Origin: Methanohalophilus mahii DSM 5219
Lineage (GTDB): Archaea; Halobacteriota; Methanosarcinia; Methanosarcinales; Methanosarcinaceae
Assembly: GCF_000025865.1 (NCBI RefSeq)
Contig: NC_014002.1
Span: forward strand, 1,488,001-1,552,000
DNA: 64,000 bases
Direction: 5' to 3'
Shown here: piece by piece, positions 31,016 through 59,045 of the stretch
Position numbering within the stretch: the first letter of the stretch is position 1
How the letters are laid out: the number at the start of each line of letters is the position of its first letter
The notes under the pieces: model-generated
The model's input: only the letters and a program-made list of their open reading frames with translations
Databases searched by the model: none
Told to the model about the DNA's origin: nothing
Made by a program: the position numbers and the translations under genes

Positions 31016-34000
31016 TCACTCTTCTTTTCTTCTAAGGAACAATACAATTCCCATTCCTATGAGGGACACTGTTAGCAGTGGATGCGCAGTAGGCACATCT
31101 TTCTCCTCTCCGTAGTAGTGACTTGGATCACTATCTTCTACGGTTTCTCCCTCATATTCACCTGTTGCAGTTGCATTGTTTACATACTGGCCGAATTCTG
31201 CTGTTCCATTGGCTGTATAGGTCCATGTTTCTCCGGGTTCCAGAATATCATCATTGTTGAGATTACTGCTCTGGAATACAGGAATTACACCCTGATCATC
31301 AGTTACATTGATGTTAGTCAGGTTAGCACTTCCAGTGTTAGTAACAACATATTCCCACTCAACTGTTGATCCAACTTCAACCTTAGGACCTTTTGGATCA
31401 TCAGCATCCTGGCCATTTGTCGACTTTTCGATATCAATAGACAGAGGTAGATACATTCCAGCATCCCATGTCCGATCGACTTCACCTGCAAACAGTGAAA
31501 TTGTGGCAGTCCTTCCGGTTGCTACATTTGCATCACTGTCTACTGCGTCGTCAGTTCCCTGATCAGCAGGACTGAATTCATAACCATCCGGCAGCACAAA
31601 CTCGACGAAGTAATCTCCTGCAGCAAGGTCTGTGAATAGGTAATACCCTGTTTCATTGGTGGTTGTACTGTCTACAAACACCTCCCCTCCTGTGTAGAGA
31701 TTGACGGTTACATCAGCAATTCCAGTGCCAGTTTCGTCCTGGATACCATCTCTGTTAAGGTCTTCCCAGACATAGTCACCCAGAGTGGCCCGAGGCGGTT
31801 CCTCACCAAAGTAGTGGCTTGGATCTTCATCAGTAACCTCTGCACCGGTTGGATCAGTTCCTGTAACATTACCGATATTGGCGTACTGACCTTCAGTTGC
31901 AGTACCTGTTACATTGTACATCCAGACTTCATCAGTTTGGAGTATATCGTCACCGTTTGTATCTCCACTTACGTATGCTGGAGTTACACCCATGTCATCC
32001 TGTACATCAATGCTGCTCAGATTGACATTACCGGTGTTTGTGACATTGTACGTCCATACAACATCTCCACCAGCTGTTACATACGGTCCGGTTGGATCAT
32101 CGGCATCTTCTCCATTGGTTGCCTTCTCAATATCGATTGAGGAGTTTACACCGAAGTAGTGGCTTGGATCCTCATCGGTAACCTCTGCACCGGTTGGATC
32201 AGTTCCTGTAACATTACCGATATTGGCATACTGACCTTCAGTTGCAATACCTGTGGCATTGTACATCCAGACTTCATCAGTTTGGAGTATATCGTCACCG
32301 TTTGTATCTCCACTTACGTATGCTGGAGTTACACTCATGTCATCCTGTACATCAATGCTGCTCAGATTGACATTACCGGTGTTTGTGACATTGTAAGTCC
32401 ATACAACATCTCCACCAGCTGTTACATAGGGTCCGGTTGGATCATCGGCATCTTCTCCATTGGTTGCCTTCTCAATATCGATTGAGGAGTTTACACCGAA
32501 GTAGTGGCTTGGATCCTCATCGGTAACCTCTGCACCGGTTGGATCAGTTCCTGTAACATTACCGATATTGGCATACTGACCTTCAGTTGCAATACCTGTG
32601 GCATTGTACATCCAGACTTCATCAGTTTGGAGTATATCGTCACCGTTTGTATCTCCACTTACGTATGCTGGAGTTACACCCATGTCATCCTGTACATCAA
32701 TGCTGCTCAGATTGACATTACCGGTGTTTGTGACATTGTAAGTCCATACAACATCTCCACCAGCTGTTACATAGGGTCCGGTTGGATCATCGGCATCTTC
32801 TCCATTGGTTGCCTTCTCAATATCGATTGAGGAGTTTACACCGAAGTAGTGGCTTGGATCCTCATCGGTAACCTCTGCACCGGTTGGATCAGTTCCTGTA
32901 ACATTACCGATATTGGCATACTGACCTTCAGTTGCAATACCTGTGGCATTGTACATCCAGACTTCATCAGTTTGGAGTATATCGTCACCGTTTGTATCTC
33001 CACTTACGTATGCTGGAGTTACACCCATGTCATCCTGTACATCAATGCTGCTCAGATTGACATTACCGGTGTTTGTGACATTGTAAGTCCATACAACATC
33101 TCCACCAGCTGTTACATAGGGTCCGGTTGGATCATCGGCATCTTCTCCATTGGTTGCCTTCTCAATATCGATTGAGGAGTTTACACCGAAGTAGTGGCTT
33201 GGATCCTCATCGGTAACCTCTGCACCGGTTGGATCAGTTCCTGTAACATTACCGATATTGGCATACTGACCTTCAGTTGCAATACCTGTGGCATTGTACA
33301 TCCAGACTTCATCAGTTTGGAGTATATCGTCACCGTTTGTATCTCCACTTACGTATGCTGGAGTTACACTCATGTCATCCTGTACATCAATGCTGCTCAG
33401 ATTGACATTACCGGTGTTTGTGACATTGTAAGTCCATACAACATCTCCACCAGCTGTTACATAGGGTCCGGTTGGATCATCGGCATCTTCTCCATTGGTT
33501 GCCTTCTCAATATCGATTGAGGAGTTTACACCGAAGTAGTGGCTTGGATCCTCATCGGTAACCTCTGCACCGGTTGGATCAGTTCCTGTAACATTACCGA
33601 TATTGGCATACTGACCTTCAGTTGCAATACCTGTGGCATTGTACATCCAGACTTCATCAGTTTGGAGTATATCGTCACCGTTTGTATCTCCACTTACGTA
33701 TGCTGGAGTTACACCCATGTCATCCTGTACCTGTATTCCGGTCAGATTGACATTACCGGTGTTTGTGACATTGTACGTCCATACAACATCTCCACCAGCT
33801 GTTACATAGGGTCCGGTTGGATCATCGGCATCTTCTCCATTGGTTGCCTTCTCAATATCGATTGAGGAGTTTACACCGAAGTAGTGGCTTGGATCCTCAT
33901 CGGTAACCTCTGCACCGGTTGGATCAGTTCCTGTAACATTACCGATATTGGCATACTGACCTTCAGTTGCAATACCTGTGGCATTGTACATCCAGACTTC

Positions 34001-37000
34001 ATCAGTTTGGAGTATATCGTCACCGTTTGTATCTCCACTTACGTATGCTGGAGTTACACTCATGTCATCCTGTACCTGTATTCCGGTCAGGTTGGCATTA
34101 CCGGTGTTTGTGACATTGTACGTCCATACAACATCTCCACCAGCTGTTACATAGGGTCCGGTTGGATCATCGGCATCTTCTCCATTGGTTGCCTTCTCAA
34201 TATCGATTGAGGAGTTTACACCGAAGTAGTGGCTTGGATCCTCATCGGTAACCTCTGCACCGGTTGGATCAGTTCCTGTAACATTACCGATATTGGCATA
34301 CTGACCTTCAGTTGCAATACCTGTGGCATTGTACATCCAGACTTCATCAGTTTGGAGTATATCGTCACCGTTTGTATCTCCACTTACGTATGCTGGAGTT
34401 ACACCCATGTCATCCTGTACATCAATGCTGCTCAGATTGACATTACCGGTGTTTGTGACATTGTACGTCCATACAACATCTCCACCAGCTGTTACATAGG
34501 GTCCGGTTGGATCATCGGCATCTTCTCCATTGGTTGCCTTCTCAATATCGATTGAGGAGTTTACACCGAAGTAGTGGCTTGGATCCTCATCGGTAACCTC
34601 TGCACCGGTTGGATCAGTTCCTGTAACATTACCGATATTGGCATACTGACCTTCAGTTGCAATACCTGTGGCATTGTACATCCAGACTTCATCAGTTTGG
34701 AGTATATCGTCACCGTTTGTATCTCCACTTACGTATGCTGGAGTTACACCCATGTCATCCTGGACCTGTATTCCGGTCAGATTGACATTACCGGTGTTTG
34801 TGACATTGTAAGTCCATACAACATCTCCACCAGCTGTTACATAAGGTCCGGTTGGATCATCTGCATCTTCTCCATTGGTTGCCTTCTCAATATCGATTGA
34901 GGAGTTTACACCAAAGTAGTGGCTTGGATCCTCATCAGTAACCTCTGCACCGGTTGGATCAGTTCCTGTAACATTACCGATATTGGCATACTGACCTTCA
35001 GTTGCAATACCTGTGGCATTGTACATCCAGACTTCACCAGGTTCGAGAATACTGTCACCATTTCCATTATCGACTAGATTATCGATTTCTCCTGTCACGT
35101 TATCCTGTACATCAATGCTGCTCAGGTTGACATTACCTGTGTTAGTGACATTGTAAGTCCATACAACATCTCCACCAGCTGTTACATACGGTCCGGTTGG
35201 ATCATCTGCATCTTCTCCATTGGTTGCCTTCTCAATATCGATTGAGGAGTTTACACCAAAGTAGTGACTTGGATCCTCATCAGTAACCTCTGCACCGGTT
35301 GGATCAGTTCCTGTAACATTACCGATATTGGCGTACTGACCTTCAGTTGCAGTACCTGTTGCATTGTACATCCAGACTTCACCAGGTTCGAGAATACTGT
35401 CACCATTTCCATTATCGACTAGATTATCGATTTCTCCTGTCACGTTATCCTGTACATCAATGCTGCTCAGGTTGACATTACCGGTGTTTGTGACATTGTA
35501 CGTCCATACAACATCTCCACCAGCTGTTACATACGGTCCGGTTGGATCATCGGCATCTTCTCCATTGGTTGCCTTCTCAATATCGATTGAGGAGTTTACA
35601 CCGAAGTAGTGGCTTGGATCCTCATCAGTAACCTCTGCACCGGTTGGATCAGTTCCTGTAACATTACCGATATTGGCATACTGACCTTCAGTTGCAATAC
35701 CTGTGGCATTGTACATCCAGACTTCACCAGGTTCGAGAATACTGTCACCATTTCCATTATCGACTAGATTATCGATTTCTCCTGTCACGTTATCCTGAAC
35801 AAGGATGTCAGTCAGGTTGGCATTACCGGTGTTTGTGACATTGTAAGTCCATACAACATCTCCACCAGCTGTTACATACGGTCCGGTTGGATCATCGGCA
35901 TCTACTCCATTGGTTGCCTTCTCAATATCGATTGAGGAGTTTACACCGAAGTAGTGACTTGGATCTTCATCGGTAACCACAATTATATCAAATTCACCTG
36001 TGACATTGCCGATGTTGGCATACTGACCCGTTTCAGCAGTACCTTCTGCAGTACATATCATAGATTCACTGACATTGAGTGTTGTTTTTGGGCAATCTAC
36101 AACAACACCCTGATCGTCAGTTACAACAATATTGTTAAGAGGTACATCACCAGTGTTTGTGACATTATATGTCCATGTAACTTCATCCCCGACAGGGATG
36201 AACGGTCCTGTAGGAGTATCGGCATCTTCACCATTGGTAGCCTTCTCTATCATGATATTTGGGCATGGCTGACGTATAAATGCAGTTGCAGTGTCTTCTC
36301 CGGGACCATCATCCAGGCCACCAGTATATACTTCAACTTTCAGATCTGGCTGACAGGGACCAACATCCCATATTTCACTGACACCGTTTATTGAAATTTC
36401 ATAGACACCATCTTCTGTTGGACTAAATGCAGCTTTTACGTCATCATAATCAAGTGGTCCCTGCTCGACTGTCCAGTTGTTGTTCTGCATTCGAAGTGTA
36501 ACGTCGGGGTTTCCTTCCTGACTAATTCTGATCTTCCATGTTTCAAGATCACCCATACCGGTACCTGCCGGGCCCTCATCTCCAATACAGTCGCCATAAT
36601 TGGTACAGTCTGTACTTATGCTGCCATCACCGTCAAGGTCTCCAGGGATTCCATAGACCGTACTCATACCGTAGAGGGTATCGTTGGCTACATCGTAGTG
36701 ACCATAGATCTGTTTTATATCGTAGCCACTTGAATCTCCAAGCTGGGCCATTGATTCATCATGACCGGTACCTGAATCATTTTTAGGGTCTTCTTCATAC
36801 CATGTATTGGTATCTTGACCAAATGCACCCTGTTTTATTTCCAGCCGGTCACCTGTGTCATAAATGTCATAGCCAGTACCATTAATCTGGCCATAACTCC
36901 AGTTATCGTTCCATTCATCAGTATTTTTTTCCCCATCCACCGTTATAGCCGAGGCTGCGGGAATTGTAATAATTAACATTAGTGCTGCACATAGAGCCAG

Positions 37001-37021
37001 CGCTATCTTCATTTGCTTCAT
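31016..37021 (-). CDS. Giant repeat surface protein with VPXXXP-CTERM tail
   Basis: From ATG 37021 (behind GGAG; an in-frame extension to 37147 overlaps the promoter) the protein has about 2001 residues. In order: signal peptide ending ASA; an N-terminal domain of about 250 residues shared with the short paralogue; one divergent repeat; twelve 115-residue DUF11-type repeats beginning SIDIEKATNGEDADDPTG and ending DEDPSHYFGVNS; one SdrD B-like domain (LGDYVWEDLNRDGIQDE); a fourteenth divergent repeat; then DVPTAHP, a hydrophobic helix and RRKEE. The tail is the archaeosortase B signal. It is probably a long stalk on the cell surface. Many NVT/NAT sequons could be N-glycosylated. Confidence 0.85.
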   Translation of the reverse strand: MKQMKIALALCAALMLIITIPAASAITVDGEKNTDEWNDNWSYGQINGTGYDIYDTGDRLEIKQGAFGQDTNTWYEEDPKNDSGTGHDESMAQLGDSSGYDIKQIYGHYDVANDTLYGMSTVYGIPGDLDGDGSISTDCTNYGDCIGDEGPAGTGMGDLETWKIRISQEGNPDVTLRMQNNNWTVEQGPLDYDDVKAAFSPTEDGVYEISINGVSEIWDVGPCQPDLKVEVYTGGLDDGPGEDTATAFIRQPCPNIMIEKATNGEDADTPTGPFIPVGDEVTWTYNVTNTGDVPLNNIVVTDDQGVVVDCPKTTLNVSESMICTAEGTAETGQYANIGNVTGEFDIIVVTDEDPSHYFGVNSSIDIEKATNGVDADDPTGPYVTAGGDVVWTYNVTNTGNANLTDILVQDNVTGEIDNLVDNGNGDSILEPGEVWMYNATGIATEGQYANIGNVTGTDPTGAEVTDEDPSHYFGVNSSIDIEKATNGEDADDPTGPYVTAGGDVVWTYNVTNTGNVNLSSIDVQDNVTGEIDNLVDNGNGDSILEPGEVWMYNATGTATEGQYANIGNVTGTDPTGAEVTDEDPSHYFGVNSSIDIEKATNGEDADDPTGPYVTAGGDVVWTYNVTNTGNVNLSSIDVQDNVTGEIDNLVDNGNGDSILEPGEVWMYNATGIATEGQYANIGNVTGTDPTGAEVTDEDPSHYFGVNSSIDIEKATNGEDADDPTGPYVTAGGDVVWTYNVTNTGNVNLTGIQVQDDMGVTPAYVSGDTNGDDILQTDEVWMYNATGIATEGQYANIGNVTGTDPTGAEVTDEDPSHYFGVNSSIDIEKATNGEDADDPTGPYVTAGGDVVWTYNVTNTGNVNLSSIDVQDDMGVTPAYVSGDTNGDDILQTDEVWMYNATGIATEGQYANIGNVTGTDPTGAEVTDEDPSHYFGVNSSIDIEKATNGEDADDPTGPYVTAGGDVVWTYNVTNTGNANLTGIQVQDDMSVTPAYVSGDTNGDDILQTDEVWMYNATGIATEGQYANIGNVTGTDPTGAEVTDEDPSHYFGVNSSIDIEKATNGEDADDPTGPYVTAGGDVVWTYNVTNTGNVNLTGIQVQDDMGVTPAYVSGDTNGDDILQTDEVWMYNATGIATEGQYANIGNVTGTDPTGAEVTDEDPSHYFGVNSSIDIEKATNGEDADDPTGPYVTAGGDVVWTYNVTNTGNVNLSSIDVQDDMSVTPAYVSGDTNGDDILQTDEVWMYNATGIATEGQYANIGNVTGTDPTGAEVTDEDPSHYFGVNSSIDIEKATNGEDADDPTGPYVTAGGDVVWTYNVTNTGNVNLSSIDVQDDMGVTPAYVSGDTNGDDILQTDEVWMYNATGIATEGQYANIGNVTGTDPTGAEVTDEDPSHYFGVNSSIDIEKATNGEDADDPTGPYVTAGGDVVWTYNVTNTGNVNLSSIDVQDDMGVTPAYVSGDTNGDDILQTDEVWMYNATGIATEGQYANIGNVTGTDPTGAEVTDEDPSHYFGVNSSIDIEKATNGEDADDPTGPYVTAGGDVVWTYNVTNTGNVNLSSIDVQDDMSVTPAYVSGDTNGDDILQTDEVWMYNATGIATEGQYANIGNVTGTDPTGAEVTDEDPSHYFGVNSSIDIEKATNGEDADDPTGPYVTAGGDVVWTYNVTNTGNVNLSSIDVQDDMGVTPAYVSGDTNGDDILQTDEVWMYNVTGTATEGQYANIGNVTGTDPTGAEVTDEDPSHYFGEEPPRATLGDYVWEDLNRDGIQDETGTGIADVTVNLYTGGEVFVDSTTTNETGYYLFTDLAAGDYFVEFVLPDGYEFSPADQGTDDAVDSDANVATGRTATISLFAGEVDRTWDAGMYLPLSIDIEKSTNGQDADDPKGPKVEVGSTVEWEYVVTNTGSANLTNINVTDDQGVIPVFQSSNLNNDDILEPGETWTYTANGTAEFGQYVNNATATGEYEGETVEDSDPSHYYGEEKDVPTAHPLLTVSLIGMGIVLFLRRKEE
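31814..35953 (-). repeat. Twelve tandem 345-bp coding repeats
   Basis: Unit boundaries recur every 345 bases from 31814 to 35953, twelve in all, each coding for 115 residues. Many units are identical over long stretches. Two sub-types occur: three units near the protein N-terminus carry DNVTGEIDNLVDNGNGDS, nine carry DDMGVTPAYVSGDTNGDD. Small alternatives (LSSIDVQ or LTGIQVQ; MGV or MSV) are shuffled among units, as expected from unequal crossing-over and gene conversion. Copy number could be misassembled and could vary between strains. Confidence 0.95.
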
Positions 37022-37080
37022 CGTATCCACTCCATTCCATACCACCGTTATTATTGGATGACTAAATCTATGAAGTGGAT

Positions 37081-37113
37081 GGTTTATACTTATGTAGTAA
37101 ACTAAGTTTCTAA
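37081..37113 (-). promoter_or_regulatory. Promoter of the giant surface gene with GTTTCTAA box
   Basis: On the minus strand AGTATAAACC (37081-37090) is a TATA box about 60 bases upstream of the start codon. TTAGAAAC (plus strand GTTTCTAA, 37106-37113) lies about 17 bases further upstream, the same arrangement as in the short paralogue's promoter. Confidence 0.55.
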
Positions 37114-37202
37114 CTATCCGTATATTTCTTCTAAACAAAAATTGCAAGCAAAAGTAGGCAAGTTGAAAGATGATTCAGGTCAGAAAGGCCAATCTTAATT
37201 GA

Positions 37203-39830: not shown

Positions 39831-41837
39831 TCAGAACCCGTTAAGGTTGTCTTCCTGAGTCACGTAGACCCAGTAAGCCTCGTATTGTTCCATCTCAAAG
39901 ACGTCTGTTCCTACATGGTTGCCAGAGATTACTCCAGTTTCACCGTTGTGTCCTACCATCTCATATGACATTGTTGCAGGATCGTATGGCCCCTTTACCA
40001 GAGTGTAAGATTCATCGATCGAAGCAAGTGTCACTTCGGCAGACAGAGTGTTCAAAGCTGTGTAACCAATGGTGTTCCAGCCTTCATAGACTGTCATTGA
40101 GGCAGGTGCTGAAGGTACTTCTGGTTCAAGCACGTCCTCGGCAATTACCTGAGTGCAGTCATCGGAACTCTTGATCCAGTATCCCTTGAGTGGTTCGAAG
40201 TCAGTGACAGTGTCCCAGGTGCCTGAAGATGCATTGTAGTATACAAGTGCATCATAGTTGACATCTGCAAGGACATAGCCAACACTGCTGTTGTTCAGTT
40301 CAAATGGTACTGACATGAAGTTCCAGCCGGGCTGGATTGCAATTCCTTCTGGAAGGACCACATCGATTGTGGTTTCCCCACCAACTGGATACTCGTTCAT
40401 CTCGGTGTCAACAACCACACCGTCAAAGGTGTATGTACCTTCTTCATTTGCAGCACTGACAGTGTATTCGAAGCTTGTTTCACCATCAAGGATGAAGGTT
40501 ACTTCGTTACCATCTACAATGCTGTTGGGTACACCGAGTGTGGAACTGACGTACTCGAAGCCCTCAGGAATCGTCTCAACAACACTGGAACCCACGCCGT
40601 CTTCCTCAACTGTGACGCTTACGTTGAACTCATCACATGGCCCGACTTCTGCCGGATCAGGCATGATGTCCCTGGTTGCGTTGACTACAGGTGGTATTTC
40701 AACCTGTGTGTCACAGCTGATATCCTGTACATTTACACCCGGTCCCATATCGAACTCACCGGCAAAGTCAAACATGCCTGGTGTAGCGTCTCCGGGGATC
40801 TGGACAGTGTAACTGTAAGTACCATCTGCGGGAGCAGAAAGTTCTACCCATCTGACCATGTCACCATCTGGAGTACCACCATTGTTTGCACTGGTTACGG
40901 TCCAGCCTGCTGGAGCAGTATCCTCAATGATGAGTTTGGTTGCATCATCGCCTGCTGTGATATCCAGTTCGACGGTAATTTCGTCACCTGGTGCGGCAGT
41001 TGCTGGCAGGTTTCTGCAGACATCTGATTCACCGTTTACTGGTGCTTCACCTGTCACTTCAACCTGTGTGTCACAGCTGATATCCTGTACATTTACACCT
41101 GGTCCCATATCGAACTCACCGGCAAAGTCAAACATGCCTGGTGTAGCGTCTCCGGGGATCTGGACTGTGTAACTGTAGGTACCATCTGCGGGAGCAGAAA
41201 GTTCTACCCATCTTACTGAGCCATCATCTGGAGTACCTCCATTGTCTGCACCGATTACGGTCCAGCCTGCTGGAGCAGCATCCTCAATGATGAGTTTGGT
41301 CGCATCATCACCTGCTGTGATATCCAGTTCGACGGTAATCTCGTCACCTGGTGCGGCCGTTGCTGGCAGACTTCTGCAGACATCGGATTCAACGACAGGT
41401 GCTCCGCCTTCTACTACTTCAACCTGTGTGTCACAGCTGATGTCCTGTACATTTACACCTGGTCCCATATCGAACTCACCGGCAAAGTCAAACATGCCTG
41501 GTGTAGCGTCTCCGGGGATCTGGACAGTGTAACTGTAGGTACCATCTGCTGGTTTTGCAAGTTCAATCCATCTGACCGTGTCACCATCTGGAGTACCTCC
41601 ATTGTCTGCACCGGTTACGGTCCAGCCTGCTGGGGCAGCATCCTCAATGATGAGTTTGGTCGCATCGCCAGCCGCAGTGATATCAAGTTCAACGGTAATT
41701 TCGTCACCTGGTGCGGCAGTTGCTGGTAGTTGCCTGCACACATCGGATTGTGCTGCAGCCGATGAGATCATCGGTATTGCGACTACCAACACCAAAGCCA
41801 TGATGCCGAGCAATCTTAACATATTGTTTATTTTCAT
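39831..41837 (-). CDS. Secreted protein with three 120-residue repeats
   Basis: The 668-residue protein has a signal peptide ending SSAAA, then three tandem repeats beginning SDVCRQLPATAAPGDEITVE (coding about 41747-41388, 41387-41028 and 41027-40689). Each has two cysteines (DVCR and DISCDT) likely to form a disulfide. A further beta domain (DIMPDPAEVGPCDEFNVSV) and a C-terminal region with QPGWNFMSVPF, YNASSGTWDT and LKGYWIKSS follow, a pattern seen in archaeal and bacterial surface proteins. It has no CTERM tail or second membrane helix. It lies 54 bases after the dockerin-like gene and is probably co-expressed and abundant. Confidence 0.75.
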   Translation of the reverse strand: MKINNMLRLLGIMALVLVVAIPMISSAAAQSDVCRQLPATAAPGDEITVELDITAAGDATKLIIEDAAPAGWTVTGADNGGTPDGDTVRWIELAKPADGTYSYTVQIPGDATPGMFDFAGEFDMGPGVNVQDISCDTQVEVVEGGAPVVESDVCRSLPATAAPGDEITVELDITAGDDATKLIIEDAAPAGWTVIGADNGGTPDDGSVRWVELSAPADGTYSYTVQIPGDATPGMFDFAGEFDMGPGVNVQDISCDTQVEVTGEAPVNGESDVCRNLPATAAPGDEITVELDITAGDDATKLIIEDTAPAGWTVTSANNGGTPDGDMVRWVELSAPADGTYSYTVQIPGDATPGMFDFAGEFDMGPGVNVQDISCDTQVEIPPVVNATRDIMPDPAEVGPCDEFNVSVTVEEDGVGSSVVETIPEGFEYVSSTLGVPNSIVDGNEVTFILDGETSFEYTVSAANEEGTYTFDGVVVDTEMNEYPVGGETTIDVVLPEGIAIQPGWNFMSVPFELNNSSVGYVLADVNYDALVYYNASSGTWDTVTDFEPLKGYWIKSSDDCTQVIAEDVLEPEVPSAPASMTVYEGWNTIGYTALNTLSAEVTLASIDESYTLVKGPYDPATMSYEMVGHNGETGVISGNHVGTDVFEMEQYEAYWVYVTQEDNLNGF

Positions 41838-41856
41838 AATGAACCCCCTTGAGTTA

Positions 41857-41881
41857 AAGTTGGGAGGGGCACTCCCAACTT
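41857..41881. other. Perfect 10-bp hairpin between two secreted protein genes
   Basis: AAGTTGGGAG, five bases, CTCCCAACTT. It occupies most of the 54-base gap between the stop at 41892 and the start at 41837, just before the AAGGGGG Shine-Dalgarno. No U-tract follows, so mRNA stabilisation, processing or partial attenuation between the two genes is more likely than full termination. Confidence 0.75.
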
Positions 41882-41891
41882 ACCATGTTCT

Positions 41892-44012
41892 TTAGCAATA
41901 CTCCTCACCTGACAGGAAGTAGTCAATCAGTTCTGAAATTTCACTGATAGACATCTGTCCACCGAGGTAGTCATCTACTGCTGCGGAAATCTCACTGAGT
42001 TCAATTATGCAGTTCTCGTTTGCATCGTACTCATTGTACTCTGGTGTTGGCTCCTGTGGTTCTTCGCCATCATCAATCATGTCCGGTGGGATGAACAGCC
42101 TGATGTCACCGTGGGTGACTGCAAGGTTGTCAGTGCAGAACTCATCATCGATCTGCAGGTACAGTGCATCCACACAGGTCCAATCTCCACTGCAGTCAGT
42201 GTCGAAGTGACCTACTGTAAAGGTATCATCAGATGGGTGTGGTACAACGCTCAGCAGATCGACATTTGACCACATCAGATTTTGATCTGCAGGTTTCAGG
42301 GTCTGTCCAAGATCCAGAGCATGCTGATCCATTACCTTGGTGTTGTTTGGATAGAATGCTTCCTTTATGGAGACATCAGTCAGCCTGACATCGTAGAGTG
42401 TTACAACATCGTTTGCATCCATGTCGATGTATGCGTGGTCTACACCTTCAGTGAACTCTCCATCGTTGTTTCTGTCAACGTATTTTATGAGGTCATAGTT
42501 TGAGAACACCTCAGTGAGTGTATACTCTACATCGATGTTACACAGGCTTACCTTGGTACCGCATTCTGGCCACTCTTCCATTTCAAAGAATGGACTGTTC
42601 GGGTCGTTTACAGGTACATACAGTCTGTGATCTCCAACTGTGACAGCCTTGTCATAATGGAATTCATCTGTCATCTGCTGGAAGTAAAGCTTGTCTGGAC
42701 AGGTCCAGTCTCCGGTGCAGTCAGAATCGATGTAACCCAAGCTTTCATTCAATGGCCCGAGTACTCCAAGTACGTCACCTGTATCTGCATCGTTAGATGC
42801 GACAACAGACCATGCATCATACATGAATGGATCTTCAAATCCTGGCAGGGATGCTTCAACATCCACCAGTCTGATATCTCCCTCATCGACAACAGTGTTA
42901 CCATTTGCATCAAGATAGAGGTCGTCTCCAAGGGTGTATCCTGGAAGTCCGTCGTTGTCGACATACCTGATAAGACTCTGGTCACTCGGTGTGAGGTCGT
43001 GTCCGAGATCGAATTCATCACAAATCTTTACCTTGGTGTTTGGACCATAGTTTGTGGAAACTTCAGTCAATCTTATGTCGCCAAAGGATACTTTTGAGTT
43101 ATTATCCATGTCAACATACCATTCAGTGTCACCACCATAGGTGTAGGATGCAAGTTGTGCATCAAGGTTTGTCATTAACATGTAGGTTGCATCGTGGTCA
43201 CCCTGTACGACCTTGGTACCACATTCAGGTACACATTCATCACCTGGTGGGATGTAGAGTCTGGTGTCACCAATTGTTACAACTTCATCGAACCACCATG
43301 AGTCTTCACCATGTGGCTGAATGAGGTAGAGCTTGTCAGAGCAGGTCCAGTCACCGCTGTTGTCGGCATCAACCCATTTTACAAGGTCGCCGGCACATCC
43401 GCTTCCGATTGCTTCAACTTCCATTCCAAATGCGGGATGGCTACTGTTAATCCTGTCCCATGACTGTCCATCTACTCCCTGTGCCTGTTCAAATTCACCG
43501 GCATTAGATTCATCAAGGGAATAAACATCCACTGCGGGCAGGTCTGTTAAAAGTATGTCCCCTCTTGAAAGTTTTCCGTCATTGTCAAGATCAAAAGCGA
43601 CACCATCATAGAGGTCATACTTTTCGTTGTCATTGACATCAACATAGACGATTGGACAGTTAATTACTTCCTCGATAACATCCTGATTGTCCATGTCTTC
43701 TGGTGCAACCTTTGTGTTTGGATCATAATTTGTGTGCCAGTTAGAAATACGTATGTCACCGGCTGTAATAATCAGTTCTTCCTGACCATTGTAATCGGGC
43801 TCCATGTCAACATAGTAATAGCCGTGTAGTGACTTTACTATAGTAGCATTTGGAGCATCATACAGGACAAACGTAGTCTCCTGATCACATTGTTCTACTT
43901 CTGTGCCGCAGGGTTTTTCCCAGCAGCCTTTTACGTCCTCTGCTGCAGCTGCGCCTGTAAAGGCCAGGCATAACATTGCCACAAGCATAAGAACACTAAT
44001 CTTCCATTGCAT
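41892..44012 (-). CDS. Large secreted calcium-binding-like protein with dockerin-like tail
   Basis: The 706-residue protein has a signal peptide ending GAAAA and starts behind GGAGGT. Three long repeats share ECGTKV, GDIRLT, NYxPNTKV and CTGDWTC-like segments and contain EF-hand-like loops such as DLDNDGKLSRGD and DRNNDGEFTEG. The C-terminus, YDANENCIIELSEISAAVDDYLGG with SISEISELIDYFL, is the dockerin-like module common in methanosarcinal surface proteins. No cohesin is visible in the window. It is strongly acidic. A structured leader precedes it. Confidence 0.75.
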   Translation of the reverse strand: MQWKISVLMLVAMLCLAFTGAAAAEDVKGCWEKPCGTEVEQCDQETTFVLYDAPNATIVKSLHGYYYVDMEPDYNGQEELIITAGDIRISNWHTNYDPNTKVAPEDMDNQDVIEEVINCPIVYVDVNDNEKYDLYDGVAFDLDNDGKLSRGDILLTDLPAVDVYSLDESNAGEFEQAQGVDGQSWDRINSSHPAFGMEVEAIGSGCAGDLVKWVDADNSGDWTCSDKLYLIQPHGEDSWWFDEVVTIGDTRLYIPPGDECVPECGTKVVQGDHDATYMLMTNLDAQLASYTYGGDTEWYVDMDNNSKVSFGDIRLTEVSTNYGPNTKVKICDEFDLGHDLTPSDQSLIRYVDNDGLPGYTLGDDLYLDANGNTVVDEGDIRLVDVEASLPGFEDPFMYDAWSVVASNDADTGDVLGVLGPLNESLGYIDSDCTGDWTCPDKLYFQQMTDEFHYDKAVTVGDHRLYVPVNDPNSPFFEMEEWPECGTKVSLCNIDVEYTLTEVFSNYDLIKYVDRNNDGEFTEGVDHAYIDMDANDVVTLYDVRLTDVSIKEAFYPNNTKVMDQHALDLGQTLKPADQNLMWSNVDLLSVVPHPSDDTFTVGHFDTDCSGDWTCVDALYLQIDDEFCTDNLAVTHGDIRLFIPPDMIDDGEEPQEPTPEYNEYDANENCIIELSEISAAVDDYLGGQMSISEISELIDYFLSGEEYC

Positions 44013-44079
44013 TCCTTTTTACCTCCGTTGAGATCTGATCTTATTTTCATTTCATAGCGGTCAAAAGGGATGCAGTTAA

Positions 44080-44198
44080 CCGGAACAGCCCACTTGCTTT
44101 AAAGGGAAGGAATTAACAGTCCCGATAACAATCGGGAGGTCAACACCTTCAACAACAAACGCTCTCACTTCCTTCCCCTGCAAGTGAAGCTGTTCGGG
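44080..44198 (-). ncRNA. Highly structured leader RNA upstream of the dockerin-like gene
   Basis: Nested complementary segments close a multi-branched fold: 44080-44089 with 44189-44198 (9 of 10 pairs), 44091-44097 with 44180-44186 (7 of 7), and 44104-44112 with 44169-44177 (9 of 9). Inside are two hairpins, CCCGAT-ATCGGG at 44121-44136 with a four-base loop, and AGGT-ACCT at 44137-44148. A minus-strand TATA box at 44247-44256 predicts a start near 44225, so the fold would occupy most of a leader of about 210 bases. I recognise no known riboswitch class. An independent small RNA is also possible. Confidence 0.65.
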
Positions 44199-44246
44199 TA
44201 CCACCACCATACCCCTTACCACTTCACATTAATCTACATCACGAAT

Positions 44247-44256
44247 CCTTATATAC
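44247..44256 (-). promoter_or_regulatory. TATA box for the structured leader and secreted protein operon
   Basis: On the minus strand GTATATAAGG, preceded by TTAAGA, is the best TATA element in this gap. It would start transcription near 44225, before the structured leader. Confidence 0.6.
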
Positions 44257-44675
44257 TCTTAAGAACCGCTGATTAGTACCATAAGTAAGAATCTATAATA
44301 GGTGGATCAAAAAAAAGCAGATTCAGAAAAACACAAGCATTAACCTTGCAGCATTGCTTTTTTGGTTCGTCTATGTCTGCCTATATAATATCTATATGAT
44401 TATGATTATATTCTACAGGTAAATCTTCAGTTCTTGCTAATAAATATTCAGCAATTGCCGAATATTATATTTCATATGTTACAACAACCTCGCAGCAATG
44501 CTTTTTTCCAATAAGCATGCAATATAATCCTTTTTGCTCAAAAAAACAATGTTTCTAAACTCATTTCTTCATTTTGTTTTAGTATAATCAATAAAAATAG
44601 TATAAAGGAGCCTGGGAAAAGTTATTTACATACTAAAAGAGAGTTTATTTGCAGTCATTATCATGGGGGTATTTA
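44257..44675. other. Intergenic region with short repeats, no gene seen
   Basis: About 420 AT-rich bases. Two near-identical 22-base elements (20 of 22 match) lie at 44342-44363 and 44486-44507, each ending in TGCTTTTTT. A 7-bp inverted repeat (AATATTC, GAATATT) is at 44443-44466 and a GTTTCTAA box at 44551-44558. TATA-like stretches near 44578-44605 should drive the nitroreductase gene. Confidence 0.5.
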
Positions 44676-56708: not shown

Positions 56709-58052
56709 ATGACAGAACTAGGTATTGTTGCAGTAGGCGGTTACAATGAAATGGGCCGTAACATGACTGCCATAAGAGTTGATGACAAGATCATCATAAT
56801 TGACATGGGACTACGTCTTGACAGGGTGCAAATCCATGAGGATGTAGAAATCGATAAAATGCACTCTCTTGAATTAATTGAGATGGGTGCTATCCCTGAC
56901 GACACAATAATGAAAGAGATTGACGGGAATGTATGTGCAATTGTTTGTACACACGGCCACCTTGATCACATCGGTGCGATCTCTAAACTGGCACACAGAT
57001 ATGCGGCTCCAATAATCGGAACGCCGTACACCTCTGCCCTGATACAACATCAGATCGATTCAGAACGCAAATTTGGTGTGAAAAACAGGATAATATCCGT
57101 AAAGGCCGGTGGCACATATCAGGTTAGTGATGATGTCTCAATCGAAATGATAAGGACACAGCACAGTATAATCGATGCGGTATTTGTTGCAATCCATACC
57201 CCCAGAGGTGCCATTTTGTATGCATGCGATTTTAAACTCGATCGTACACCTACCCTCGGAGAACCTCCGGCATTTGACAGGTTAAGGGAACTTGGCAAGG
57301 AAGGGGTTGTGGCCATGATTGCTGAAAGTACAAATGCGACACGTGCAGGTAAAACCCCTTCCGAAAGAATAGCCCATGATATGGTTCGTGATGTATTACT
57401 TGGAACTGAAGAATCCGATGTGGGCATGATAATAACAACTTTCGCATCCCATATTGCCCGTCTGAATTCCATAATGCAGTTTGCGACAGAAATGAAGAGG
57501 ACCCCGATCCTGCTTGGACGCTCTATGGACAGGTATGTCAATACCGCCCGTGAACTGGGATACATCGAACTTCCGAAGAAAACAGAAATATACGGTAACC
57601 GGAAAGATATTGACAAGGCATTCAGGAAAATTATGGATAAAGGTAAGGACAAATACCTCCCAATCGTTACAGGACACCAGGGTGAGCCAGGGGCAATTCT
57701 TTCCCGGGTTGCCAATGGCGATACTGCCTACAAAATAGAATCCGGAGATAAGGTCATTTTCTCAGCAAACACAATACCTACCCCGATGACACAGGCTAAC
57801 AGGTATGCTCTTGAGACAAAACTCAAAATGAAAGGAGCACGTCTGTATGACAATGTCCATGTTTCCGGACATGCATATCGTGAAGACCACTGGGAATTAA
57901 TCAGACTCGTAAATCCTGAAAATGTAATTCCTGCACACGGCCACATCGATATGCACAGTGCCTATATTGAAATGGCTGAAGATGCAGGTTATGAACTCGG
58001 TCACACCCTTCATCTCTTGAGAAACGGAGAAGAATTATATCTTGAAGATTAA
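56709..58052 (+). CDS. Archaeal ribonuclease J (beta-CASP)
   Basis: The 447-residue protein starts GIVAVGGYNEMGRNMTAI and has the metallo-beta-lactamase motif CTHGHLDHIGAISKL, the later His in TQHSIIDAVFVAI, and beta-CASP elements including VTGHQGEPGAILSRVANG and VHVSGHAYREDHW. Archaeal RNase J is a 5'-to-3' exonuclease acting on RNA. Its position inside the isoprenoid block is common in euryarchaea. Confidence 0.93.
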   Translation: MTELGIVAVGGYNEMGRNMTAIRVDDKIIIIDMGLRLDRVQIHEDVEIDKMHSLELIEMGAIPDDTIMKEIDGNVCAIVCTHGHLDHIGAISKLAHRYAAPIIGTPYTSALIQHQIDSERKFGVKNRIISVKAGGTYQVSDDVSIEMIRTQHSIIDAVFVAIHTPRGAILYACDFKLDRTPTLGEPPAFDRLRELGKEGVVAMIAESTNATRAGKTPSERIAHDMVRDVLLGTEESDVGMIITTFASHIARLNSIMQFATEMKRTPILLGRSMDRYVNTARELGYIELPKKTEIYGNRKDIDKAFRKIMDKGKDKYLPIVTGHQGEPGAILSRVANGDTAYKIESGDKVIFSANTIPTPMTQANRYALETKLKMKGARLYDNVHVSGHAYREDHWELIRLVNPENVIPAHGHIDMHSAYIEMAEDAGYELGHTLHLLRNGEELYLED

Positions 58053-58079: not shown

Positions 58080-59045
58080 ATGGATTTAATTGATGAATTA
58101 AAAAAACGCAGTACACTGGTCGATGAATCTATACAGGAATTCCTGCCCATCGACCACCCGGAGGAATTGTACCGTGCAACACGGTACCTTCCGGATGCTG
58201 GAGGGAAAAGACTTCGTCCGGCAGTCCTCATGCTTTCCGCTGAAGCAGTGGGTGGGGATTCTGATTCCGTTCTTCCTGCTGCTGTTGCCCTTGAACTTAT
58301 CCATAACTTCACACTTATACACGATGATATTATGGACAGGGACGATATTCGCCGCGGAATGCCGGCACTTCATGTAAAATGGGGTACTGCAGGAGCAATT
58401 CTGGCCGGTGATACCCTTTATTCCCGTGCCTTTGAGATCATTTCAAAAATGGATGCCGATCCACAAAAATTACTCAAGTGCGTGGCCTTATTGTCCCGTA
58501 CCTGTACCAAAATCTGCGAAGGGCAGTGGCTGGATGTTGATTTTGAAAAAAGGGATATTGTGGATGTGGATGAATATCTGGAAATGATAGAAAACAAAAC
58601 ATCTGTGCTTTATGGGGCTGCTGCCAAGGTGGGTGCCATCCTTGGAGGGGCATCCGATGAAGTTGCTGATGCAATGTATGAATTCGGCCGTCTTACAGGT
58701 ATAAGTTTTCAGATACATGATGATGTGATCGACCTGGTTACTCCGGAGGAAATTCTGGGCAAATCAAGAGGTAGTGACCTGAAAGAAGGTAAAAAGACGC
58801 TTATTGCACTTCATGCCCTGAATAATGGCGTTGAACTGGAATGCTTTGGCAAAGCTGATGCGACCCAGGATGAGATCAACAATGCAGTCGCAAAACTGGA
58901 AGAATCAGGAACGCTTGCCTATGTCAGGGAAATGGCTGATAACTATCTTGAAGATGGTAAAAGCAAACTTGACTTGCTGGAAGATTCCCCGGCAAAAGAA
59001 ACATTGATTGAAATTGCCGATTATATGGTCAGTAGAGAATACTGA
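58080..59045 (+). CDS. idsA: Geranylgeranyl/farnesyl diphosphate synthase
   Basis: The 321-residue trans-prenyl synthase has the first Asp-rich motif in LIHDDIMDRDDIRRG (about residues 80-94) and the second in FQIHDDVIDLVTPEE, plus GGKRLRPAVLML near the N-terminus. It condenses IPP with DMAPP and longer chains to give C15-C20 diphosphates for archaeol. Chain length cannot be fixed by eye; the residue pattern before the first motif (ALELIHNFTLIHDD) is consistent with archaeal bifunctional enzymes. Confidence 0.93.
   Translation: MDLIDELKKRSTLVDESIQEFLPIDHPEELYRATRYLPDAGGKRLRPAVLMLSAEAVGGDSDSVLPAAVALELIHNFTLIHDDIMDRDDIRRGMPALHVKWGTAGAILAGDTLYSRAFEIISKMDADPQKLLKCVALLSRTCTKICEGQWLDVDFEKRDIVDVDEYLEMIENKTSVLYGAAAKVGAILGGASDEVADAMYEFGRLTGISFQIHDDVIDLVTPEEILGKSRGSDLKEGKKTLIALHALNNGVELECFGKADATQDEINNAVAKLEESGTLAYVREMADNYLEDGKSKLDLLEDSPAKETLIEIADYMVSREY

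What the first reader, a model, noticed from the sequence alone, without database searches (positions are those of the whole stretch)
44080..44198. Unassigned multi-branched RNA structure in the leader of a major secreted-protein operon
Three nested stems totalling 25 pairs close around two hairpins, in a leader of about 210 bases between a TATA box (44247-44256) and the start of the gene at 44012. Such pairing over 119 bases is not expected by chance. It is not a tRNA or a riboswitch I know. It could sense a ligand, salt or temperature, stabilise an abundant mRNA, or be a separate small RNA.
Basis: partly seen in the sequence, partly recalled or inferred. Interest (0 to 1): 0.72.

Follow-up and report, generated by a model that had tools for sequence, protein, structure and literature searches.

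The report
Conserved structured mRNA leader, methanogen surface-protein gene
In salt-loving methane-producing archaea, the messenger RNA of one large secreted protein begins with a long stretch that folds back on itself almost completely; this folded start is better conserved than much of the protein it precedes and matches no RNA family in Rfam, so it is probably a real control or protection element whose exact job is not yet known.

Summary
The minus strand at 44080-44198 folds at -56.4 kcal/mol (z -6.5, 0 of 200 shuffles). At -79 kcal/mol over 176 nt it is more stable than all 1452 sampled windows of the 64 kb. The genome is Methanohalophilus mahii by size. The leader occurs once there and only ahead of this secreted-protein family: 12 copies in 8 genomes by a covariance model made without the M. 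mahii group. Within the genus it is 94-97% identical, against 84-86% for the upstream spacer and 92-93% for neighbouring coding DNA. Methanomethylovorans(?)- and Methanosalsum-type leaders are also structured but not alignable; Methanosarcina-type leaders are not. Covariation is real but modest (P3: 2 double, 2 single compensations). No Rfam match, conserved ORF or terminator; the Shine-Dalgarno site lies outside the domain. Best reading: a cis-acting structured 5' UTR that protects or tunes a surface-protein mRNA. A switch between two folds is the main rival. It is a new, undescribed member of a known kind.

The parts
44247..44256 (-). TATA box (TATATAA 44249-44255); predicted transcript start about 44227-44230
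   Evidence: Sequence. TATA to closing-helix spacing is 24-27 nt in the leaders where the scan found a clear TATA box. TATA lies about 19-22 nt from the TSS in Methanolobus psychrophilus (PMC5378194).
44218..44223 (-). P1 5' strand AGUGGU, pairs with 44056-44061
   Evidence: MFE; invariant in 9 leaders of two genera except one U-A to U-G change
44056..44061 (-). P1 3' strand ACCGCU
44212..44217 (-). P1b 5' strand AAGGGG, pairs with CCCUUU 44064-44069
   Evidence: kept in Methanohalophilus, re-registered (AUGG/CCAU) in Methanococcoides
44064..44069 (-). P1b 3' strand
44203..44207 (-). P2 5' strand GUGGU, pairs with ACUGC 44072-44076
44072..44076 (-). P2 3' strand; part of the most conserved block AACUGCAUCC(C/A)UUUUGRCCGCU
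44188..44199 (-).
   Evidence: 2 double and 2 single compensatory changes plus one repaired C-C mismatch in G033
44079..44090 (-). P3 3' strand
44180..44186 (-). Stem 2 5' strand CACUUGC, pairs with GCAAGUG 44091-44097 in the MFE fold
   Evidence: mismatched in G034 and G036
44091..44097 (-). Stem 2 3' strand
44169..44179 (-). Stem 3 5' strand AGGGGAAGGAA, pairs with 44102-44112
44102..44112 (-). Stem 3 3' strand
44137..44148 (-). Apical hairpin AGGU-GUUG-ACCU
44121..44136 (-). Apical hairpin CCCGAU-UGUU-AUCGGG; its loop (44128-44130) varies among relatives while the stem does not
44162..44190 (-). Alternative local hairpin Pa: GCUUCACUU 44182-44190 with AAGUGAGAGC 44162-44171; competes with stem 2
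   Evidence: Counterpart hairpin with different bases in G033 and Methanococcoides; 9-14 kcal/mol less stable than the rod in the M. mahii group without a pseudoknot
44021..44026 (-). Shine-Dalgarno GGAGGU, outside the leader domain
41892..44012 (-). Secreted protein, 706 aa, signal-peptide-like N-terminus, tandem Cys/Asp-rich repeats, C-terminal dockerin/EF-hand-like segment (weak, by eye and E 0.09 match); no Pfam or NCBIfam match

Best explanation
44056-44223 on the minus strand is a self-contained structured 5' untranslated region of the mRNA for a large secreted protein. Shown: it is real, stable, strand-specific, conserved, tied to one gene family, and starts at the promoter-proximal end of the predicted transcript. 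Inferred: because a closing helix locks the 5' end within a few nucleotides of the expected transcript start, while the ribosome site lies downstream and outside, the element most likely acts in cis to keep the mRNA alive (blocking 5'-end attack by RNase J-type 5'-to-3' nucleases) and to keep the ribosome site clear of the rest of the leader, giving steady output of a surface protein. Structured or long leaders that set mRNA life or output are known in the same archaeal family (mta, cdh).
For: Stability: core z -6.5; whole domain -79.1 kcal/mol, below all 1452 tiled windows. RNA-strand specific: sense folds about 12-28 kcal/mol better than antisense in all 14 leaders, with conserved G-U pairs. 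Purifying selection: leader 94-97% identical against 84-86% for the upstream spacer and 92-93% for neighbouring CDS. Homology beyond the genus: the model R1, made from Methanococcoides plus G033, finds the M. mahii group at E 4e-5 to 1e-3 per genome, as the single hit in each, and all 12 hits below E 0.01 lie ahead of this gene family. P3 covariation: 7 substitutions all keep or repair pairing; simulated chance 0.001. TATA-to-P1 spacing about 24-27 nt in leaders of different sequence. No terminator, no conserved ORF. RBS outside the domain. Three RMMBL nuclease genes, including an RNase J-like ORF at 56709-58052. Precedents: PMC5378194, PMC3600222.
Against: No transcript, half-life or probing data. 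Protection from 5' decay is inferred from position only. Covariation rests mostly on one lineage comparison, and P1 is invariant, which is uninformative. Stem 2 loses pairs in two of three close relatives. The Shine-Dalgarno site is predicted to pair largely with early coding sequence. Methanosarcina-type orthologues lack a structured leader (z about 0), so the element is dispensable in some relatives.
Confidence: 0.5

Rival explanations
1. A regulatory switch. The 5' strand UUCACUUGC can pair either with the nearby AAGUGAGAG (hairpin Pa, possibly with a pseudoknot GGGAAGG/CCUUCCC) or with the distant GCAAGUGG (long rod); a ligand, protein, salt or temperature shifts the balance and so changes stability or translation.
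For: Both partners are present in all four M. mahii-group leaders. A Pa counterpart exists with different bases in G033 and Methanococcoides and is in the MFE or within 2 kcal/mol there. Rod stem 2 accumulates mismatches while Pa does not change. G033 has a similar choice between P3 and a local GGACA/UGUCC hairpin.
Against: In the M. mahii group the Pa fold is 9-14 kcal/mol worse without the pseudoknot. The structural register of Pa between genera was set by hand. No RBS, terminator or other output device is coupled to the choice. No Rfam riboswitch matches.
Confidence: 0.25
2. A separate small RNA, made from its own start or cut from the mRNA leader, acting in trans.
For: Compact, stable 170-nt domain; many intergenic sRNAs are known in Methanosarcina and Methanolobus (PMC5378194).
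Against: No oligo-U terminator after the domain. It is always directly upstream of the same gene family, one per gene with one tandem duplication. The start would coincide with the gene's own promoter.
Confidence: 0.07
3. A translated short upstream ORF: an AUG at leader position 12-17 is present in all 14 leaders and its translation would unfold the 5' side of the rod.
For: AUGG lies 12-17 nt into every trimmed leader.
Against: The peptides are 3-44 residues long and mostly unrelated; frame-changing indels separate even M. mahii from its closest relatives. There is no well-spaced Shine-Dalgarno site ahead of it.
Confidence: 0.06
4. A DNA-level inverted repeat (protein-binding palindrome or cruciform) or a chance hairpin without function.
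For: Any inverted repeat also folds as DNA, and the antisense strand folds well too.
Against: G-U pairs and strongly better sense folding in all 14 leaders; conservation above neighbouring coding DNA; single copy, so not a mobile repeat.
Confidence: 0.07

Closest known systems
Long 5' UTRs of mtaA/mtaC methanol methyltransferase mRNAs in cold-adaptive Methanosarcina (contribute to transcript stability; cited in PMC5378194)
   Same: Same archaeal family; a long leader of a highly needed mRNA, proposed here to set mRNA life
   Different: Different genes; no sequence relation was tested here; the present leader is a single almost fully paired domain tied to a surface-protein gene
cdh (CODH/ACS) 5' leader of Methanosarcina (Anderson et al. 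2009, as described in PMC3600222)
   Same: cis-acting methanogen leader that affects expression after initiation
   Different: That one is substrate-dependent, by early termination or cleavage; no U-tract terminator follows the domain here
Bacterial 5' stabilising stem-loops such as E. coli ompA (from general knowledge)
   Same: Closing helix at the extreme 5' end; mRNA for an abundant surface protein; RBS outside
   Different: Bacterial, much smaller hairpins, different nucleases; no homology
Hsp20 leaders of Methanolobus psychrophilus with RBS-masking stem-loops (PMC5378194)
   Same: Structured methanogen 5' UTR
   Different: There the ribosome site is buried in the hairpin; here it lies outside the domain

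Membership tests
Any Rfam 15 family (including riboswitches, SRP, RNase P, tRNA-like) | covariance-model score at or above the gathering cut-off | tested here: not met
   no gathering-score hit in the window; only sub-threshold chance matches at E 0.28 or worse
Structured, cis-acting 5' UTR leader of methanogens | lies between promoter and start codon of one transcript | tested here: inconclusive
   TATA box and spacing fit; the transcript start was not mapped
Structured, cis-acting 5' UTR leader of methanogens | structure conserved with its gene in relatives | tested here: met
Structured, cis-acting 5' UTR leader of methanogens | changes mRNA half-life or output | not testable with these tools
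   needs an experiment
RNA thermometer of the RBS-masking type | Shine-Dalgarno or start codon sequestered in the structure | tested here: not met
   the domain ends at 44056; the SD at 44021-44026 pairs, if at all, with early coding sequence
Transcription attenuator or intrinsic terminator | U-tract after the hairpin | tested here: not met
   only a UUUU within the closing helix region; not shared by the G029/G030 and Methanosalsum-type leaders
Independent small RNA | own terminator or discrete transcript, free of one host gene | tested here: not met
   no terminator, and only found in cis to this gene family; a processed species was not testable

The most novel reading that the evidence does not exclude
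A new archaeal leader-RNA class, outside Rfam, that flips between a long rod and a local hairpin/pseudoknot to sense a cell-surface-related signal (a protein, an ion or osmotic state) and sets surface-protein output. The leader has been kept constant while the protein coded behind it has been exchanged between species.
Probability: 0.18. Interest if true: 0.75.

Novelty: new member of a known kind. Interest (0 to 1): 0.46.

Why it matters
Few conserved structured leader RNAs are described in archaea, although methanogens have unusually long 5' UTRs. This one is compact, strongly conserved, tied to one surface-protein gene family and has structured counterparts in several lineages. That makes it a good test case for whether archaeal 5' structure protects mRNA from 5'-end decay, and for how output of cell-surface proteins is set. 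The constant leader ahead of a diverged mature protein also suggests expression control is under stronger selection than the protein itself.

Tried and rejected
tRNA or known RNA families: no Rfam match at gathering score; weak matches at E 0.28 or worse are chance. Mobile or repeated element: single copy in the genome. Short upstream ORF: AUG shared but peptide and frame not. Terminator/attenuator: no U-tract. Anti-SD model (ACCUCC at 44135-44140 pairing with the SD GGAGGU): not kept in G033, G016a or the Methanosalsum type, and buried in hairpins. Leader outside the family: 186 genomes of the order gave no further hits at E 0.1. The weak R1 hit in G056 (E 0.23) was not followed up. The G023 match to the Methanosalsum leader was chance inside a coding gene. 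Methanosarcina-type orthologues: leader not structured. Sequence alignment of the G029/G030 and Methanosalsum leaders with the M. mahii leader was not convincing, so these count as analogous architecture, not proven homologues.

Full report
WHAT IS THERE. The window lies in a single-contig genome of 2,012,424 bases, the size published for Methanohalophilus mahii SLP (PMC3017947). On the minus strand a TATA box at 44249-44255 is followed about 240 nt later by the start codon of a 706-aa secreted protein at 44012. The 119-nt core folds at -56.4 kcal/mol against a shuffled mean of -32.6 (z -6.5, 0 of 200).

THE DOMAIN IS LARGER. Folding the whole leader adds three outer helices (44218-44223/44056-44061, 44212-44217/44064-44069, 44203-44207/44072-44076), giving 61 pairs from 44223 to 44056. 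The 176-nt segment has MFE -79.1 kcal/mol. Of 1452 tiled 176-nt windows on both strands of the 64 kb, the best reaches -67.3. The closing helix starts about 25 nt after the TATA box. In Methanolobus psychrophilus the TATA box lies about 19-22 nt from the start (PMC5378194), so the helix probably begins 3-7 nt from the mRNA's 5' end. The start itself is not mapped.

CONSERVATION WITHIN THE GENUS. Three other Methanohalophilus genomes keep the full leader. G032 is M. halophilus (2,022,959 bp, as published in PMC5313614), G034 is probably M. portucalensis by size, and G036 is Methanohalophilus sp. RSK. The leader is 94-97% identical, the upstream spacer 84-86%, neighbouring coding DNA 92-93%, and the stretch from the domain to the start codon 97-100%. 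In M. halophilus and M. portucalensis the mature protein drops to about 47-50% DNA identity soon after the signal peptide, so the leader is kept while the protein behind it differs.

BEYOND THE GENUS. Orthologues or partial relatives of the protein occur in 18 other Methanosarcinaceae genomes. A covariance model built only from Methanococcoides and the diverged G033 leaders finds the M. mahii-group leaders at E 4e-5 to 1e-3 per genome, as the only hit in each. It finds 12 leaders in 8 genomes at E below 0.01 (one further hit, G056 at E 0.23, is weak), and no more in 186 genomes of the order at E 0.1. All 12 stand before this gene family, including two tandem copies in Methanococcoides seepicolus. 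Genus members without the gene (G031, G035, G037) lack the leader. G029/G030 (probably Methanomethylovorans, from genome size and my own knowledge) and the Methanosalsum leaders have other sequences but are also structured (z -2.5 to -4.3), with a helix closing at a similar distance from the promoter. Methanosarcina-type leaders are not structured (z about 0 to +1).

RNA RATHER THAN DNA. In all 14 leaders the sense strand folds about 12-28 kcal/mol better than the antisense strand, owing partly to G-U pairs kept in the closing helices.

COVARIATION. On the 9-sequence alignment 91% of cells pair, against 32-52% when the partner strand is slid. P1 hardly varies. In P3, G033 differs from M. mahii at 7 of 24 positions; two pairs change on both sides, two change on one side and one C-C mismatch becomes C-G. 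Random placement of 7 substitutions gives full pairing with probability 0.001. Between Methanosalsum leaders at 90% identity, 50 of 54 pairs are unchanged and only one is broken. This is support, but from few lineages.

UNSETTLED INTERIOR. Stem 2 (44180-44186/44091-44097) has one mismatch in RSK and two in M. portucalensis. Its 5' strand can instead pair with 44162-44171 as hairpin Pa, whose counterpart in G033 and Methanococcoides uses different bases at most positions, in a register I set by hand. In the M. mahii group the Pa fold is 9-14 kcal/mol less stable unless a pseudoknot (GGGAAGG with CCUUCCC) forms, which the programs do not score. Two alternative folds are therefore possible.

WHAT IT IS NOT. 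No Rfam family matches. There is no U-tract terminator. The shared AUG near the 5' end opens mostly unrelated peptides of 3-44 residues with frame changes even within the genus. The Shine-Dalgarno site lies 30 nt beyond the domain and pairs, if at all, with early coding sequence.

HOW IT PROBABLY WORKS. Shown: a stable, conserved, strand-specific leader in cis to one secreted-protein gene family. Inferred: its 5' end is locked in a helix, the ribosome site is free of it, and the cell has three RMMBL-type nuclease genes, including an RNase J-like ORF at 56709-58052. The likeliest role is protecting and insulating the mRNA of a surface protein. Long leaders that stabilise or control mRNAs are reported in the same family for mta and cdh genes (PMC5378194, PMC3600222). 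A switch between two folds is the main rival. Abundance of the protein is assumed, not tested.

VERDICT. The element is a previously unclassified conserved leader RNA, of a known general kind. Confidence that it is a real structured 5' UTR element is about 0.9; for mRNA protection or insulation as the mechanism, about 0.5.

Noticed in passing
43858-40680 against L088 (M. halophilus) and L089 (G034): Leader, signal peptide and flanks stay similar, but the mature part of the secreted protein and the start of the next gene drop to about 47-50% DNA identity or do not align, then similarity returns to 82-89%: looks like allelic replacement of a surface-protein segment behind a constant leader.
   Followed up: partly
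L074 about 1363-1836 (Methanococcoides seepicolus, G022 C148:59818-60289): The leader is duplicated in tandem before one paralogue; both copies have small defects in the closing helices, as if decaying.
   Followed up: partly
44342-44363 and 44486-44507: A 22-nt direct repeat (91% identical, spacing 144) upstream of the TATA box, possibly a regulator binding site.
   Followed up: no
L032, L049, L050 upstream of TATA: Repeated TACTTAC-like words upstream of the promoter in Methanococcoides; a similar word stands at about 44262-44290 in M. mahii.
   Followed up: no
31016-37147: 2043-aa protein with many near-identical DUF11-type repeats and a VPXXXP-CTERM sorting signal; the repeats match several places in relatives.
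   Followed up: no
58081-58256 (+) and 41713-41888 (+): Other stretches with unusual predicted folding (z -6.7 and -5.8); the first lies at the start of a predicted coding ORF (58080-59045), the second holds a perfect 10-bp hairpin between two genes of this operon.
   Followed up: no
L105: A contig binned as Candidatus Fermentibacteria carries a 33%-identical relative of the secreted protein, a possible binning error or transfer.
   Followed up: no
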